Positions 24,320-31,780 of a DNA stretch of 64,000 nt are shown in pieces. The stretch comes from Chloracidobacterium thermophilum B (GTDB lineage: Bacteria; Acidobacteriota; Blastocatellia; Chloracidobacteriales; Chloracidobacteriaceae), in assembly GCF_000226295.1 (NCBI RefSeq), contig NC_016024.1, positions 1,285,501 through 1,349,500 on the forward strand, written 5' to 3'. The position numbers and the translations under genes are program-made. The stretch's first letter is position 1. The number at the start of each line of letters is the position of its first letter. The notes under the pieces were generated by a model. That model saw only the letters and a list, made by a program, of their open reading frames with translations. It was not told the origin of the DNA and did not search any database.

Positions 24320-25441
24320 TTACTTGCCCGCCGGGGCGGCGCTGGACGGCGGGCCGGCTGGCTCGGCCGGCGGCGAGTTGACGACGGCCTTCATCGCCTC
24401 GTCAATGGCTTTCTGGGCATCAGCGACCATCTGCTCCCAGCGTTGATCCTTGGGAATATCCTTGTCAAGGCTGGGCATCGAAAGCCGCATCTGGCTGATC
24501 TGCCCCTCCGGGGTGTAGTAAAGCCGCAGATCGCCGAGGAGCTTTGTCTGGGAAAAGGCATAGACGACCGAAACATCGTTGACCTTCTGCACCTGAAGGT
24601 ACATCGCCCCGGAGTTGTTGGCCACAACGACGAGATCAATGCCCGGCACTTTCGTGATCTTGTCAGTTTGGGCTTCAGGACCATAGGACATCACAATGAC
24701 GAAGTCGGCCTTGGTGCGCAGTTCGGGCAGAACCCGCTTGAGGGCTTCCGCCGGGTCCTCGATGGCAAAGTTGAGCGTTTCAGCGCCGGGATTGGGATTG
24801 GCCATGGTGACGCCCGTGATCCCCAGCCGGACGGGTTTGGGCAGCCGCTTGCTCTGCACGGTTTCAATAATGTAGGCGGGAAGCGGCGTCAGTTCCGGCT
24901 TGGTGGGACGGATGTTGGCGGAGACGATGCGGTTCAGAAAGGGAAACGTCTGGCGTTTGGTATCAAACTCAGGTTTGTGCAGCAGCTCGGCCAGCATCTG
25001 GACATCGAAGTAGCTTGCGTTGGCGGCGGCAAACCCGGCTTCGCCGTAGGCGCGCAGCATCCACTCGTTGCGCACGCGGTCGTAGGGCTGGATGTAGCCT
25101 ACCGAGTTGGCGAACATCCGTCCGGCGTCGAGCTGCACAATGGCGGCGTCGGGAGCGAGCTTTTTGAGACCTTCAGCATAGCCCATCCGCCAGGCAATCC
25201 CGCCCTGGGGATGTTTGGGGCAGCCGCAGTCCTTGAGGTTGCCCTGCACATCAGCGCCGAACAGAATCGAGAGGGCAAAACCGTCATCCTGGCCGAGTCG
25301 GGCGGCAAACTCCGGCGACATCGCCGCTGTTCCCGGGTTGGCATCACCGGCTGCCGAGCCATTCTGGCAACTGAGCGAGGGAAGGAGTCCAGCCAGCAGC
25401 GCCAGAGCTGCGGCGAGTATGATTCCATACTTGGGTTTCAT
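24320..25441 (-). CDS. Metallophosphatase-like lipoprotein with DCGC motif
   Basis: 373 residues. The N-terminus is a lipoprotein signal (GIILAAALALLAGLLPSLSC), with the lipidated Cys at about 25. The core resembles the UshA/5'-nucleotidase-type calcineurin fold: LFGADVQGNLKDCGCPKHPQ and GGIAWRMGYAEGLKK at the N-terminus, VQLDAGRMF, NASYFDVQ, RLGITGVTMANPNP, and VIVMSYGPEAQTDKI, GIDLVVVANNSGAMY. Several metal ligands of classical enzymes are altered (for example GADVQGN where D-x-H is usual, and no clear GNHE), so it may bind rather than cut substrates, or bind a metal or cofactor through DCGC. The last 20 residues are Pro/Ala-rich. It converges on dprA. Confidence 0.65.
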   Translation of the reverse strand: MKPKYGIILAAALALLAGLLPSLSCQNGSAAGDANPGTAAMSPEFAARLGQDDGFALSILFGADVQGNLKDCGCPKHPQGGIAWRMGYAEGLKKLAPDAAIVQLDAGRMFANSVGYIQPYDRVRNEWMLRAYGEAGFAAANASYFDVQMLAELLHKPEFDTKRQTFPFLNRIVSANIRPTKPELTPLPAYIIETVQSKRLPKPVRLGITGVTMANPNPGAETLNFAIEDPAEALKRVLPELRTKADFVIVMSYGPEAQTDKITKVPGIDLVVVANNSGAMYLQVQKVNDVSVVYAFSQTKLLGDLRLYYTPEGQISQMRLSMPSLDKDIPKDQRWEQMVADAQKAIDEAMKAVVNSPPAEPAGPPSSAAPAGK

Positions 25442-26523: not shown

Positions 26524-26925
26524 TCAGCGTTTGAGCAGGTCCCGAATCTCGGTCAGCAGTTTTTCTTCATTGGTCGGCTCTGGCGGGGATGCCGCCGGGG
26601 CCGGCGCTGGTTGCCGCAGGCGGTTGACAGCCTTGATGACCAGAAAGACGGAAACGGCAATGATGAAAAACTGAAGGACGAACTGAAAAAAGTTGCCATA
26701 CCGGATCGCAATGACCGGGTCGCCGGCTTTGGCCGCTTCCTTGAGGACGATTCTGGCTTCGGAGAGATTGACCCCGCTGGTGAGCAGGCTGATGGGCGGC
26801 AGGATGATGTCCTCGACGAAGGACGACACAATTTTGCCAAAGGCACCACCGATGACGACGCCGATGGCCAGATCAATGACGCTGCCGCGTGAGATGAAGG
26901 TCTTAAACTCCTGAACGATACTCAT
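26524..26925 (-). CDS. mscL: Large-conductance mechanosensitive channel MscL
   Basis: 133 residues, normal for the family. It opens a wide pore when membrane tension rises in hypo-osmotic shock. The N-terminal helix and first membrane segment read QEFKTFISRGSVIDLAIGVV and IGGAFGKIVSSFVEDIILPP; the second is FFQFVLQFFIIAVSVFLVIK, followed by the cytoplasmic helix EEKLLTEIRDLLKR. It converges on the esterase and lies 44 bases downstream of the NADH dehydrogenase gene on the same strand. Confidence 0.97.
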   Translation of the reverse strand: MSIVQEFKTFISRGSVIDLAIGVVIGGAFGKIVSSFVEDIILPPISLLTSGVNLSEARIVLKEAAKAGDPVIAIRYGNFFQFVLQFFIIAVSVFLVIKAVNRLRQPAPAPAASPPEPTNEEKLLTEIRDLLKR

Positions 26926-26969: not shown

Positions 26970-28259
26970 CTATGGTGTTTCCTGGAGAAGTTCATCCGTT
27001 CGGGGGGTGGTGATGATGCGCGCCCCCTGCCGGTAGGTGATATAGCGGAAAATCCATTCGGTGAGAACACTGACCTTGTTGTTGAAGCCGACGAGCATGG
27101 CCAGGTGGACAATGAGCCAGCCAATCCAGGCCAGGAAGCCGGTCATGCGCAGTTTGCCGACTTCCAGGACGGCGGCCGCCCGTCCGATGGTCGCCATGCT
27201 GCCCTTGTCGAAATAGACGAACGGCGGCGGCTTGGGCCTGCCGCGCAACTCGGCAGCCAGGACCCTGGCGGCATAGCGCCCCATCTGAAGCGCCGCTGGC
27301 GCCACGCCCGGCACGACGACGCCCTTGGCGTCGGTCAGCGCCGCGATGTCGCCGATGGCGAAGATTTCGGGATGACCGGGAACCCGCAGGTCGGGTTCAA
27401 CCTGAATCCGCCCGGTCCGGTCGGTGGGCAACCCCAGTTTGCGCGCCAGAGGATGCCCTTCGACACCGGCGCACCAGATGATGTTGGCCGCCTCGATGAT
27501 TTTTCCGTTGTCCAGTTCAATCTGGTGTGGTCCGACGCGGACGACACGCGAGGAGACACGCACATCCACGCCGAGCTGAACAAGCTTCTGGCGGGCGTAC
27601 TCCGAAAGGGCCGGATGATAGGGCGGAAGCAGGCGTGGAGCGCTCTGGATAAGAAAGACCCGCGCCTGAGAGGTGTCAATGTTTTTGAAATCGCGCCGCA
27701 GAACGCGCCGCGTCAGCTCGCCGAGCGCCCCGGCCAGTTCGACGCCGGTCGGGCCACCTCCCACAACGACAAAGGTGGTCAGACACTTGACCTGGGACGG
27801 GTCGGGGCAGTTTTCGGCTTCCTCAAACGCCGAGAGCACCCGGTTGCGGATGTTGAGGGCATCTTCAATGCCTTTGAGTCCGCCGGCGTAGCGCGCCCAG
27901 TCGTCATTGCCGAAGTAGCCTGTGCGGGCGCCAATCGCCAGTACGAGGTAATCGTACTGAAGTGTCCGCCGCCGCATGGTGATGATACGGCTCTGGAAGT
28001 CAATCCCGGTAACTTCATCCATCAGCACGGTGATGTCACGCCGCCGGTCGAAAATCGTGCGGATGGGTTCGGCAATGTCGGACGGGGAGAGGTCAGCCGT
28101 CGCTACCTGATACAGAAGCGGTTGAAACAGGTGGTAGTTGTTGCGGTCCACCAGCGTAATGTCGGCCAATCCTTCCGGGAAGGCCTGGCAAAAAGCGACG
28201 CCGCCAAACCCGGCACCGACAACAACGATGTGTTTGCGTCGGGAAGCAGATTGGGTCAT
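26970..28259 (-). CDS. ndh: Type II NADH:quinone oxidoreductase (NDH-2)
   Basis: 429 residues. The FAD-binding motif KHIVVVGAGFGGVAFCQAFP is followed by YHLFQPLLYQVATADLSPSD, a family hallmark. The second dinucleotide site is TTFVVVGGGPTGVELAGALG, and FAIGDIAAL closes the FAD site. A hydrophobic C-terminal segment (LAWIGWLIVHLAMLVGFNN) and amphipathic tail anchor it to the inner membrane. It oxidises NADH and reduces quinone without pumping protons, alongside the complex I encoded at 38734. The start at 28259 directly precedes the FAD motif; an upstream ATG at 28376 would add 39 residues with no family match. Confidence 0.93.
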   Translation of the reverse strand: MTQSASRRKHIVVVGAGFGGVAFCQAFPEGLADITLVDRNNYHLFQPLLYQVATADLSPSDIAEPIRTIFDRRRDITVLMDEVTGIDFQSRIITMRRRTLQYDYLVLAIGARTGYFGNDDWARYAGGLKGIEDALNIRNRVLSAFEEAENCPDPSQVKCLTTFVVVGGGPTGVELAGALGELTRRVLRRDFKNIDTSQARVFLIQSAPRLLPPYHPALSEYARQKLVQLGVDVRVSSRVVRVGPHQIELDNGKIIEAANIIWCAGVEGHPLARKLGLPTDRTGRIQVEPDLRVPGHPEIFAIGDIAALTDAKGVVVPGVAPAALQMGRYAARVLAAELRGRPKPPPFVYFDKGSMATIGRAAAVLEVGKLRMTGFLAWIGWLIVHLAMLVGFNNKVSVLTEWIFRYITYRQGARIITTPRTDELLQETP

Positions 28260-28404
28260 CCGAGTTGATACGTTCTCTGAGTGGATAACTTCAGGAGCTT
28301 TCGTCTCACAATGTGGAGCGGCTTGACGACGCCCCCTTACTTCGCCACATTCCACGTGGCAATTCAAGCCAGCCATTCAGGTCAGCAGGACAGGGGGCAC
28401 CACT

Positions 28405-29694: not shown

Positions 29695-29913
29695 ATGCAA
29701 CTTCATATCTGGTTCGTTGGAAGCGCCGAACCAATCGAGGTTCGCATGGATACAGAAGTTGAAAATGTGGACGCGCTTGGTATCTTGCTGTCGCAGGCGC
29801 GGTGGTTGGCTGTGGATGGAGGACGGCTCATTAATCTGGCCAATGTCCGTATGATTCGCCTTCTGCAAAGCGGTGAGAGTGTGACATCTTCGGTTGCCCG
29901 GATGGAGATATGA
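29695..29913 (+). CDS. Small uncharacterised protein (72 residues)
   Basis: A 72-residue frame (MQLHIWFVGSAEPIEVRMDT...) with a hydrophobic beta-strand start and a C-terminal segment GGRLINLANVRMIRLL that resembles the surface-strand pattern of small beta-sheet proteins. No signal peptide or membrane segment is visible. I see no strong ribosome-binding site. The stop is 1 base before the next small gene's ATG, which supports both being real. No family recognised. Confidence 0.5.
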   Translation: MQLHIWFVGSAEPIEVRMDTEVENVDALGILLSQARWLAVDGGRLINLANVRMIRLLQSGESVTSSVARMEI

Positions 29914-29914
29914 C

Positions 29915-30166
29915 ATGCTGTTTGGCAAGAAACCCAAAAAATCCGCGACGTTGCTTGAGTACGGCACGGTGACAGGCGAGGTGACAGGTGCCAACGAGCT
30001 ACGCACACCAGAGGGCAAGGTGTATCGGTTGTTCGAGAATCCCATCCATCTCAAGGATACCGAACCCCGCCCGCTGGATGTTTCAGCGCGTTTGGGAACC
30101 ACCATCAAGGTCGCCGGCAGTGTCGGTTCCGACACGATTTACGAAGCCAAACTCGTTACGTCCTGA
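29915..30166 (+). CDS. Small uncharacterised protein (83 residues)
   Basis: 83 residues from the ATG at 29915, which follows GGAG with a 7-base spacer. The sequence (MLFGKKPKKSATLLEYGTVT, then GKVYRLFENPIHLKDTEP) starts basic and continues as a short beta-rich domain; no membrane segment. It begins one base after the stop of the 72-residue gene, so the two are probably co-translated. After it a hairpin with GCCGGCG (30176-30182) and CGCCGGC (30190-30196) is present. No family recognised. Confidence 0.55.
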   Translation: MLFGKKPKKSATLLEYGTVTGEVTGANELRTPEGKVYRLFENPIHLKDTEPRPLDVSARLGTTIKVAGSVGSDTIYEAKLVTS

Positions 30167-30175
30167 AACTGAAGC

Positions 30176-30196
30176 GCCGGCGGCGCGATCGCCGGC
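30176..30196 (+). terminator. GC-rich hairpin after the small gene
   Basis: GCCGGCG, loop GCGCGAT, CGCCGGC: a perfect 7-bp stem 10 bases after the stop codon. No T-run follows. It may slow or end transcription, or protect the 3' end of the upstream mRNA. Confidence 0.35.
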
Positions 30197-30299
30197 CGTG
30201 GGCGCATTTCTACAAGCCTGACGTCCCCTGAAAATCTGTCTGAAGCGGGTCTGGCTGCGCGCCGGCTGACGCCGGGCAGGGTATGAACGGTGAGTTGTG

Positions 30300-30473
30300 A
30301 TGCCGGTGATTGAGTTTGTCATCTACGTCATCGCCTATGTTGCGGTTGGCTTTCTGTTCGTGCGCTTCGGGTTGCGCACGTCCGAGGGGCCGCTCACCAC
30401 AGCCCAGGCGTTGAAAATTGCCCTGCCGGTCGGAGTGGCCATGGCTATCGCGACGATGTATTTCAGCGGCTGA
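30300..30473 (+). CDS. Small two-helix membrane protein (57 residues)
   Basis: A 57-residue frame not long enough for most gene finders. It opens with ATG at 30300, after GGTGAG at 30289-30294 (5-base spacer). Two hydrophobic segments, FVIYVIAYVAVGFLFVRFG and ALKIALPVGVAMAIATMYF, are joined by a polar loop (LRTSEGPLTTAQ). That pattern predicts an inner-membrane hairpin. Codon use and the good start signal support a real gene. It lies ahead of another small gene on the same strand. Function unknown. Confidence 0.6.
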   Translation: MPVIEFVIYVIAYVAVGFLFVRFGLRTSEGPLTTAQALKIALPVGVAMAIATMYFSG

Positions 30474-30488
30474 GTCCGTGATTGATTC

Positions 30489-30508
30489 GGCATGCCCGAT
30501 GGCATGCC
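30489..30508 (+). promoter_or_regulatory. Perfect hairpin between two small genes
   Basis: GGCATGCC (30489-30496), loop CGAT, GGCATGCC (30501-30508): an 8-bp stem made of two copies of a self-complementary octamer. It sits between the stop of the 57-residue gene and the GGGAGG ribosome-binding site of the next gene at 30515. It may be a transcript-processing or protein-binding site. Confidence 0.45.
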
Positions 30509-30525
30509 ATTGTCGGGAGGAACTT

Positions 30526-30720
30526 ATGGGGCAGTATGTACGTGAGCCATACGAAGGCTATCTGGGAGGCGCTTTCCACAACTACGCAGAGAGTTTTGCC
30601 GACCTGATTTCCAGTCTGGTCGAGGCGCTGGGGGCCCTGCTCAAGACGCTGGCAGAAGGCGCGATTGCTTTGATTTCGACGCTGATGCAGCCCCAGCCGG
30701 CAGCGGGTCCAAGCGCCTAG
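30526..30720 (+). CDS. Small protein with C-terminal hydrophobic helix (64 residues)
   Basis: 64 residues from the ATG at 30526, placed 5 bases after a strong GGGAGG (30515-30520). The first third (MGQYVREPYEGYLGGAFHNY) is polar and aromatic-rich; the rest (LISSLVEALGALLKTLAEGA) is one long amphipathic to hydrophobic helix. It could attach to a membrane or form a coiled bundle. The perfect start signal makes it a likely gene despite its size. No family recognised. Confidence 0.6.
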   Translation: MGQYVREPYEGYLGGAFHNYAESFADLISSLVEALGALLKTLAEGAIALISTLMQPQPAAGPSA

Positions 30721-30801
30721 ATGAGGACCCAGTGCGGTTACGGCCCACACCACTGCTGCCGGTGGGGTGTTCCGTAACGCAGACTGGCCGCCGGTGGCTT
30801 G

Positions 30802-31437
30802 ATGACCTTTCTGCTTGATGGCCCGGCGGGTCCACTGGAGGCGCTGTACACACGCGCCCCCAACCCGCGGGGATGGGCGGCTTTGGTTTGCCATCCGCAT
30901 CCGGTTTTTGGCGGGACGATGCACAACCGTGTGGTGTATCGCACCGCCAAAGCTTTTTTGGCCGGCGGCGCTCACGTCCTGCGGTTCAACTTCCGGGGCG
31001 TGGGTGCCAGTCGCGGTGGCTATGATGGCGGCATCGGTGAACAGGCCGATGCTGCTGCCGCGCTGGCCTTCCTGCAAGCACAGCATCCGCAGGAGGTACT
31101 CGTCGTGGCTGGCTTTTCTTTTGGCTCGTGGGTCGGATTTCAGGCGGCGCTCCGCTGTCCCCAGGTCAGGGGACTGCTGGGCGTCGGCGTGCCGACCTTT
31201 CGGTTTGACTTTTCATTCCTGCACAGGGTCACGCTCCCGAAGTGGATTATTCAGGGAGATGCCGACGAATTTGGCCCGGCGGCGGACGTTGAAGCCCTGC
31301 TTGCGCGCTGTCAGGAACCGAAAGGGCGAACCTTCATCCCACGCGCCAATCATTTCTTCGATGAGCATCAGACAGAACTTGCCGACGCGCTTGCCGCCGC
31401 CGTAGCCTGGTTACAGCGGCAGTCCCTTCCGGCCTAG
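30802..31437 (+). CDS. Alpha/beta-hydrolase, YfhR/dienelactone-like small family
   Basis: 211 residues. It starts TFLLDGPAGPLEALY and contains AALVCHPHPVFGGTMHNRVV, a hallmark of a small alpha/beta-hydrolase group, then RFNFRGVGASRG, the nucleophile VVAGFSFGSWVGFQAAL and the C-terminal histidine in ANHFFDEHQ. It has no signal peptide. Members are probably esterases or hydrolases with unknown substrates. The ATG at 30802 follows a TTG at 30799 in the same frame. It follows the small-gene cluster by 81 bases. Confidence 0.87.
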   Translation: MTFLLDGPAGPLEALYTRAPNPRGWAALVCHPHPVFGGTMHNRVVYRTAKAFLAGGAHVLRFNFRGVGASRGGYDGGIGEQADAAAALAFLQAQHPQEVLVVAGFSFGSWVGFQAALRCPQVRGLLGVGVPTFRFDFSFLHRVTLPKWIIQGDADEFGPAADVEALLARCQEPKGRTFIPRANHFFDEHQTELADALAAAVAWLQRQSLPA

Positions 31438-31477
31438 CCAAAGCCCCCCTGCGAGAATGCCCTGCGAGGTTCACGCC

Positions 31478-31780
31478 ATGCCGATGCCAGATGCCCCAGA
31501 GGTTCTGACGCCAGCCGCCGATGCAACCGGTGCCGTTACGGAGGACGCTGCTTCCGCCGCCGCCCCGGCGCAGGAGGCAGCGGATGCAACCCGGGAAGAG
31601 GAAAGCTTCAAGCAGCTCATCCGTGACTTTGTTCTGGGCAACAACCAGAACCCCGACGACATGCCCGGACTGCGGTTTTATGTCGTCTTTGCCGGGATGC
31701 TGGCCCTGGCGCTCGGCGGCGTGGCGGTGGTGGCGATCCTGCTGGGGCTGGTCCAGTGGGTGCGCTCATTTTTTCATTAA
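31478..31780 (+). CDS. Small Ala-rich protein with one C-terminal membrane segment
   Basis: 100 residues from the ATG at 31478 (GAGG 9 bases upstream; the ATG at 31457 is in frame but lacks one). Residues 1-45 are Ala/Glu/Asp-rich and probably disordered. Residues about 72-92 (FAGMLALALGGVAVVAILLG) form a single membrane segment. A predicted tail-anchored or type II membrane protein of unknown function. It converges on the SH3 gene with the hairpin below between them. Confidence 0.6.
   Translation: MPMPDAPEVLTPAADATGAVTEDAASAAAPAQEAADATREEESFKQLIRDFVLGNNQNPDDMPGLRFYVVFAGMLALALGGVAVVAILLGLVQWVRSFFH

What the first reader, a model, noticed from the sequence alone, without database searches (positions are those of the whole stretch)
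29695..31780. Cluster of five unrecognised small genes, one below 60 codons
Frames of 72, 83, 57, 64 and 100 residues follow one another on the plus strand, several with strong ribosome-binding sites (GGTGAG before 30300, GGGAGG before 30526) and two with membrane segments. Hairpins at 30176-30196 and 30489-30508 break the cluster into units. A hydrolase lies inside it. A small membrane-complex or toxin-like locus is possible, and the genes would be easy to miss.
Basis: partly seen in the sequence, partly recalled or inferred. Interest (0 to 1): 0.5.

Follow-up and report, generated by a model that had tools for sequence, protein, structure and literature searches.

The report
Small membrane-protein genes of photosynthetic Acidobacteria
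Five small genes spotted by eye in a photosynthetic hot-spring bacterium are real and conserved, and three of them occur only in the light-harvesting members of its family, which makes them candidate parts of the light-harvesting machinery, although that role is not yet shown.

Summary
The five frames (72, 83, 57, 64, 100 aa) lie where stated, around an alpha/beta-hydrolase gene. The genome is very probably Chloracidobacterium thermophilum, a chlorophototrophic acidobacterium. All six genes keep one order in 8 of 8 genomes: 7 Chloracidobacterium, the window's included, and 1 MAG of another genus of the family. Pooled pN/pS of the small frames is 0.11-0.42, so they are real genes. The hairpins are not conserved and do not define units. 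The toxin idea has no support.

The cluster has two layers. P1, P2 and the hydrolase form an older family-level core, present in 10 of 10 family members. P3 (two transmembrane helices), P4 (one 46-residue amphipathic helix) and P6 (one transmembrane helix) are present in exactly the 8 of 10 family members that carry the FMO antenna protein and the chlorosome protein CsmA. They are absent from the 2 that carry neither, where only 118 and 284 bp separate P2 from the hydrolase. None matches a known family.

Best reading: P3, P4 and P6 are lineage-specific accessory proteins of the photosynthetic membrane or chlorosome. This is inference. The phototrophs form one clade, so co-occurrence counts as one event, and their published chlorosome proteome could not be read here.

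The parts
29695..29913 (+). P1, 72 aa soluble protein of unknown function; family-level core
   Evidence: in 10 of 98 relatives (all 10 genomes of family f1); no Pfam match
29915..30166 (+). P2, 83 aa soluble protein of unknown function; family-level core
   Evidence: in 10 of 98 relatives; in 5 of 396 genomes of the phylum sample, all five of family f1
30300..30473 (+). P3, 57 aa, two-helix membrane hairpin; only in FMO+/CsmA+ genomes
   Evidence: (mean pLDDT 93.4)
30526..30720 (+). P4, 64 aa, single long amphipathic helix, no transmembrane segment; only in FMO+/CsmA+ genomes; most constrained of the six
30802..31437 (+). P5, alpha/beta hydrolase (211 aa)
   Evidence: PF12146 E 4.9e-11; relatives in 94 of 98 genomes
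31478..31780 (+). P6, 100 aa, variable N-terminal tail, conserved juxtamembrane segment, one transmembrane helix; only in FMO+/CsmA+ genomes
30176..30196 (.). inverted repeat, not conserved
30489..30508 (.). inverted repeat before P4, seen only in this genome and G004

Best explanation
The cluster is a single-strand six-gene block, probably one operon. An older core (P1, P2, hydrolase P5), shared by all 10 held genomes of the family, differs between the two branches of that family by the presence of three small genes: P3 and P4 between P2 and P5, and P6 after P5. Shown: the genes are real, constrained and co-linear, and P3, P4 and P6 occur exactly where FMO and CsmA occur. Inferred: the three are accessory structural proteins of the acidobacterial photosynthetic membrane. 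P3 would be a two-helix membrane hairpin at the edge of an intramembrane complex. P4 would be an amphipathic helix lying on a lipid surface such as the chlorosome's envelope monolayer, with its invariant aromatic residues and one histidine near the N-terminus. P6 would be a single-pass anchor whose conserved 30-residue juxtamembrane part docks a partner. The confidence given is for the photosynthetic role; that the five frames are real genes I hold at about 0.97.
For: P3, P4 and P6 are each found in 8 of 98 relatives, the same 8. FMO (PF02327) is found in 8 of 14 genomes searched, the same 8, and CsmA (PF02043) in 8 of 10, the same 8; the two other family members G007 and G009 have neither. 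G007 and G009 carry P1, P2 and the hydrolase with 118 and 284 bp between P2 and the hydrolase, against 562-693 bp in the 8 carriers. The block stays intact in G008, although its flanks there (a patatin-like fragment and a transporter, named by eye) differ from those in the window. P4 has the lowest pooled pN/pS, 0.11. Its predicted helix 9-54 is amphipathic in 8 of 8 genomes, with 0 or 1 of 20000 shuffles as amphipathic; CsmA from the same genome, same statistic, 185 of 20000. P3 is modelled as a two-helix hairpin at pLDDT 93.4, and 25 of the 50 listed second-look matches are photosystem I K or G chains by their chain letters, with two photosynthetic alternative complex III subunits.
Against: The FMO-positive genomes lie on one side of one branch, so the co-occurrence is one evolutionary event; any gene gained at that branch, or lost on the sister branch, would show it, and no genome-wide background was measured. 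The genes are not next to pscA, pscB, fmoA or csmA. P3, P4 and P6 matched no chain of the solved structures, a copy that holds at least the PscB chain of C. thermophilum reaction-centre entry 7vzg. P4 has no sequence relation to CsmA. Foldseek matches of P3 all have E above 1, and Z of 5-6 is also reached by unrelated soluble helical proteins. P6 evolves fast (pN/pS 0.42). No expression or proteome data were seen.
Confidence: 0.38

Rival explanations
1. P3, P4 and P6 are clade-specific envelope or respiratory small proteins that have nothing to do with light; they mark the branch, not the trait.
For: One change on the tree separates carriers from non-carriers. The block is distant from the photosynthesis genes found. 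The core of the block (P1, P2, hydrolase) also exists without the three genes in two genomes that lack FMO and CsmA.
Against: The match to two phototrophy markers is exact in 10 of 10 family members, and the order is kept in a second genus with other flanks; neither excludes this rival.
Confidence: 0.45
2. A subset of the three (P4 most likely) are chlorosome envelope proteins that the published C. thermophilum chlorosome proteome of 2011 has already named; the finding is then known biology under other names.
For: The paper's title announces envelope proteins; I saw only its reference entry. P4 has CsmA-like size and an amphipathic helix.
Against: Nothing seen here ties any of the proteins to that list; the paper is not held and a search for the names CsmR, CsmS, CsmT and CsmU (recalled, unverified) found nothing relevant.
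Confidence: 0.14
3. Toxin-antitoxin or other selfish small-gene locus.
For: Small adjacent genes, two with membrane segments.
Against: Vertical-looking, single-copy, co-linear conservation in all 8 carriers, purifying selection, no match to a toxin or antitoxin family in PADLOC-DB, PHROGs, Pfam or NCBIfam.
Confidence: 0.02
4. Chance open frames.
For: None found.
Against: Frame conservation and pN/pS far below 1 in five frames.
Confidence: 0.01

Closest known systems
CsmA / Bac_chlorC (PF02043), chlorosome baseplate protein
   Same: Similar size (64 aa against 75 in this genome), a long amphipathic helix, a conserved histidine, same set of 8 genomes
   Different: No sequence relation to P4 (hhalign probability 1.2 %); P4 has no PF02043 match
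PsaK / PsaG, two-helix edge subunits of photosystem I
   Same: P3 is predicted as a two-helix hairpin and aligns over 49-57 residues at rmsd of about 1.7-4.3 A; loop with positive residues, as recalled for PsaK
   Different: 6-18 % identity, Foldseek E above 1; unrelated soluble proteins score as well, so this is resemblance of arrangement only
PscU, PscV, PscW, PscZ and the unidentified polypeptide UPP of the C. thermophilum reaction centre (PMC9751088, section 6 and passages read)
   Same: Same organism or a near one; small, lineage-specific subunits
   Different: Lengths 35, 36, 45, 70 and 19 residues in the review table (PMC10968294, passages); no sequence match of P3, P4 or P6 to solved chains; UPP is modelled as polyalanine, so it cannot be compared
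DUF202 (PF02656)
   Same: Weak hit of 2 of 8 P3 homologues, best E 0.11
   Different: Below the curated cut-off (13.4 against 23.4 bits); not significant

Membership tests
CsmA (PF02043) for P4 | profile match over the Pfam cut-off | tested here: not met
   no PF02043 row for P4 or for any of its 8 alignment members; the CsmA of the same genome scores 33.7 bits against a cut-off of 25
CsmA (PF02043) for P4 | detectable profile-profile similarity | tested here: not met
   hhalign probability 1.2 %, 10 columns
Chlorosome envelope protein (works like) | location in the chlorosome envelope | not testable with these tools
   needs fractionation and proteomics; the published proteome is not held
Chlorosome envelope protein (works like) | present in all CsmA bearers of the family and in no other family member | tested here: met
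   8 of 8 and 0 of 2; one evolutionary event only
PsaK/PsaG-like subunit for P3 | two transmembrane helices forming a hairpin | tested here: met
   (prediction)
PsaK/PsaG-like subunit for P3 | significant structural or sequence match | tested here: inconclusive
   Foldseek E above 1; VIA Z 4-6 shared with unrelated rows
CabRC subunits PscU/PscV/PscW/PscZ | sequence identity with the solved chains | tested here: inconclusive
   no match for P3, P4, P6; entry 7vzg is in the library through its PscB chain, but I did not verify that its small chains are there
Toxin-antitoxin or defence locus | match to a known toxin, antitoxin or defence family | tested here: not met
Alpha/beta hydrolase (P5) | profile match over cut-off | tested here: met
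   PF12146, 42.8 bits against 27

The most novel reading that the evidence does not exclude
P3, P4 and P6 are undescribed structural subunits that complete the chlorosome-FMO-reaction-centre assembly of phototrophic Acidobacteriota: P3 an edge subunit lost on purification, P4 a second amphipathic baseplate or envelope protein beside CsmA, P6 a membrane anchor that holds antenna to membrane; they entered an older P1-P2-hydrolase operon when the lineage became phototrophic.
Probability: 0.22. Interest if true: 0.65.

Novelty: new member of a known kind. Interest (0 to 1): 0.4.

Why it matters
The FMO antenna was lost when the reaction centre of C. thermophilum was purified, and one polypeptide in the structure is unassigned (PMC10968294 and PMC9751088, passages read). 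A short list of three small, conserved genes limited to the phototrophic members of the family gives direct targets for proteomics and cross-linking. If they prove unrelated to light they are still three orphan membrane-associated protein families that small-gene annotation could easily miss.

Tried and rejected
P3, P4 or P6 as one of the solved reaction-centre subunits: no sequence match; not fully excluded, see membership test.

P4 as a CsmA relative: rejected. Weak matches of P4 to melittin (Pfam E 0.078 at best, in 4 of 8 members; PDB E 0.54-0.61) reflect an amphipathic helix and are not significant. A weak spike-protein match (E 0.039) has no stretch that passes on its own.

Distribution outside the family: the P4 profile in 396 genomes of the phylum gave 3 strong hits, all of the window's genus, and 2 weak ones (E 0.003 and 0.008) inside frames of 507 and 254 aa, which I take as chance. 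The P3 profile in 396 genomes gave the same 3 strong hits and 11 weak ones (E 8e-4 to 0.009), 10 of them inside frames of over 300 aa and one in a 73-aa frame (G223); taken as chance, not examined further. The listed matches of that sample did not include G008 or four genomes of the genus that carry the genes, so they were not drawn. A pattern scan of the 84,980-species collection for P4 gave 4 loci out of 31 candidate stretches, three titled Chloracidobacterium or Blastocatellia and one titled Actinomycetota with the scaffold name WN_Acidobacteria; it reaches close relatives only. Other phototroph phyla were therefore not tested with a sensitive search.

P1 and P2: no family match above cut-off; one weak PDB match of P2, E 0.016. 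Function not resolved.

Full report
What was checked. The window lies at 1,285,501-1,349,500 of contig 1 of a genome of 3,695,372 bases in two contigs, the first of 2,683,362 bases. Two chromosomes of about 2.7 and 1.0 Mb are described for Chloracidobacterium (PMC8245765, abstract passage), near relatives of the locus carry Chloracidobacterium titles, and its PscB matches chain B of reaction-centre entry 7vzg. I take it as Chloracidobacterium thermophilum or a near-identical strain; no record name was seen.

The observation. All five small frames are at the stated places, with an alpha/beta hydrolase (PF12146) between the fourth and fifth. Relatives of the frames, in the same order and on one strand, were found in 7 of 7 genomes of the genus (the window's own included) and in one genome of another genus of the family, G008. 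Pooled within-genus pN/pS is 0.18 (P1), 0.13 (P2), 0.19 (P3), 0.11 (P4), 0.22 (hydrolase) and 0.42 (P6); synonymous sites are near saturation in many pairs, so these are rough. The spacers show little conservation beyond gene ends. The hairpin at 30176-30196 is broken in the nearest relative, and that at 30489-30508 is shared with that relative only. The GGAGGA site before P4 is kept in 7 of 8 genomes, whereas GGTGAG before P3 is kept in 2 of 8.

Two layers. P1 and P2 occur in 10 of 98 relatives, that is, in all 10 genomes of family f1, and the hydrolase in 94 of 98. P3, P4 and P6 occur in 8 of 98, always the same 8. The two family members without them, G007 and G009, keep P1-P2-hydrolase in order with only 118 and 284 bp between P2 and the hydrolase, against 562-693 bp in the carriers. 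In G008 the block is intact although its flanks differ from those of the window: a patatin-like fragment upstream and a transporter downstream (named by eye from the frames), against an alcohol dehydrogenase upstream and an SH3-domain protein downstream in the window.

Link with phototrophy. I searched the FMO family PF02327 in 14 genomes and the CsmA family PF02043 in 10. FMO is in 8 of 14 and CsmA in 8 of 10, in both cases exactly the carriers of P3, P4 and P6, and neither is in G007 or G009. That G008 is a phototroph is inferred from these two genes alone. The match is exact, but the carriers form one side of one branch in the hydrolase tree (99/98 support), so it is one evolutionary event and cannot by itself tell a photosynthetic role from shared ancestry. 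I could not measure how many other genes share the distribution.

What the proteins look like. P3: two hydrophobic helices joined by a short loop with conserved arginines; AlphaFold2 model at mean pLDDT 93.4. Foldseek finds no significant match (best E 1.2). In the second look, 25 of the 50 listed rows are photosystem I K or G chains by their chain letters and two are subunits of photosynthetic alternative complex III, with Z of about 4-6; soluble RNase P proteins score the same, so this shows only a common arrangement. P4: one helix from residue 9 to 54 (mean pLDDT 78), amphipathic in all 8 genomes with 0 or 1 of 20000 shuffles as high, no transmembrane stretch, invariant Y4, Y9, Y12, F17, H18 and Y20. 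P6: variable tail, a conserved segment before and into its one transmembrane helix. None has a family in Pfam or NCBIfam above cut-off, and PADLOC-DB and PHROGs gave none.

Mechanism proposed. Chlorosomes are pigment bodies wrapped in a lipid monolayer with a minor protein content (PMC12214013, passages). A protein that cannot span a bilayer but carries a long amphipathic helix fits such a surface; a two-helix hairpin and a single-pass protein fit the adjoining membrane. I therefore propose that P4 lies on the chlorosome or membrane surface while P3 and P6 sit in the membrane, helping to hold antenna, FMO and reaction centre together. Co-occurrence, conservation and predicted shapes are tool results; location, partners and function are inferred. 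The reaction-centre structure from this organism lacks FMO and has one unassigned polypeptide modelled as polyalanine (PMC9751088, section 6 and passages; PMC10968294, passages), so undetected or lost partners are possible there, but none of the three proteins matches a solved chain.

Known or new. No match to a described family was found. The main caveat is the 2011 paper on chlorosome envelope proteins of this organism, which I could not read (only its reference entry was seen); P4 or others may be listed there. Searches for names or locus tags were made; none of the papers listed was seen to treat this locus. That these proteins are not in print is not claimed.

Verdict. The toxin reading fails. 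The most useful result is the split into an old core and three small genes that track the photosynthetic members of the family. I put the photosynthetic role at 0.38 and the plain clade-marker rival at 0.45, so the role is a testable lead and not the favoured certainty.

Noticed in passing
29695-30166; L086, L087: P1 and P2 are a conserved pair of small soluble proteins next to the hydrolase in all 10 family genomes, with no family match; in G007 and G009 the pair lies divergent to a large peptidase-like gene (named by eye).
   Followed up: partly
26524-26925 and 26970-28376: A large-conductance mechanosensitive channel gene (MscL, PF01741) lies beside a type II NADH dehydrogenase.
   Followed up: no
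L085:1-7115 (record JAAFHI010000161.1): A MAG titled Actinomycetota with the scaffold name WN_Acidobacteria falls in the Chloracidobacterium family and carries FMO and CsmA: apparently a phototrophic acidobacterium of another genus, mislabelled.
   Followed up: partly
L103:7123-13280: pscA, pscB, fmoA and an ArsA-like ATPase follow one another on one strand in this genome (assigned from the frames, the fmoA match and the PscB match).
   Followed up: no
24320-25441: A 373-aa frame with a lipoprotein-like start has no Pfam match at E 0.001.
   Followed up: no
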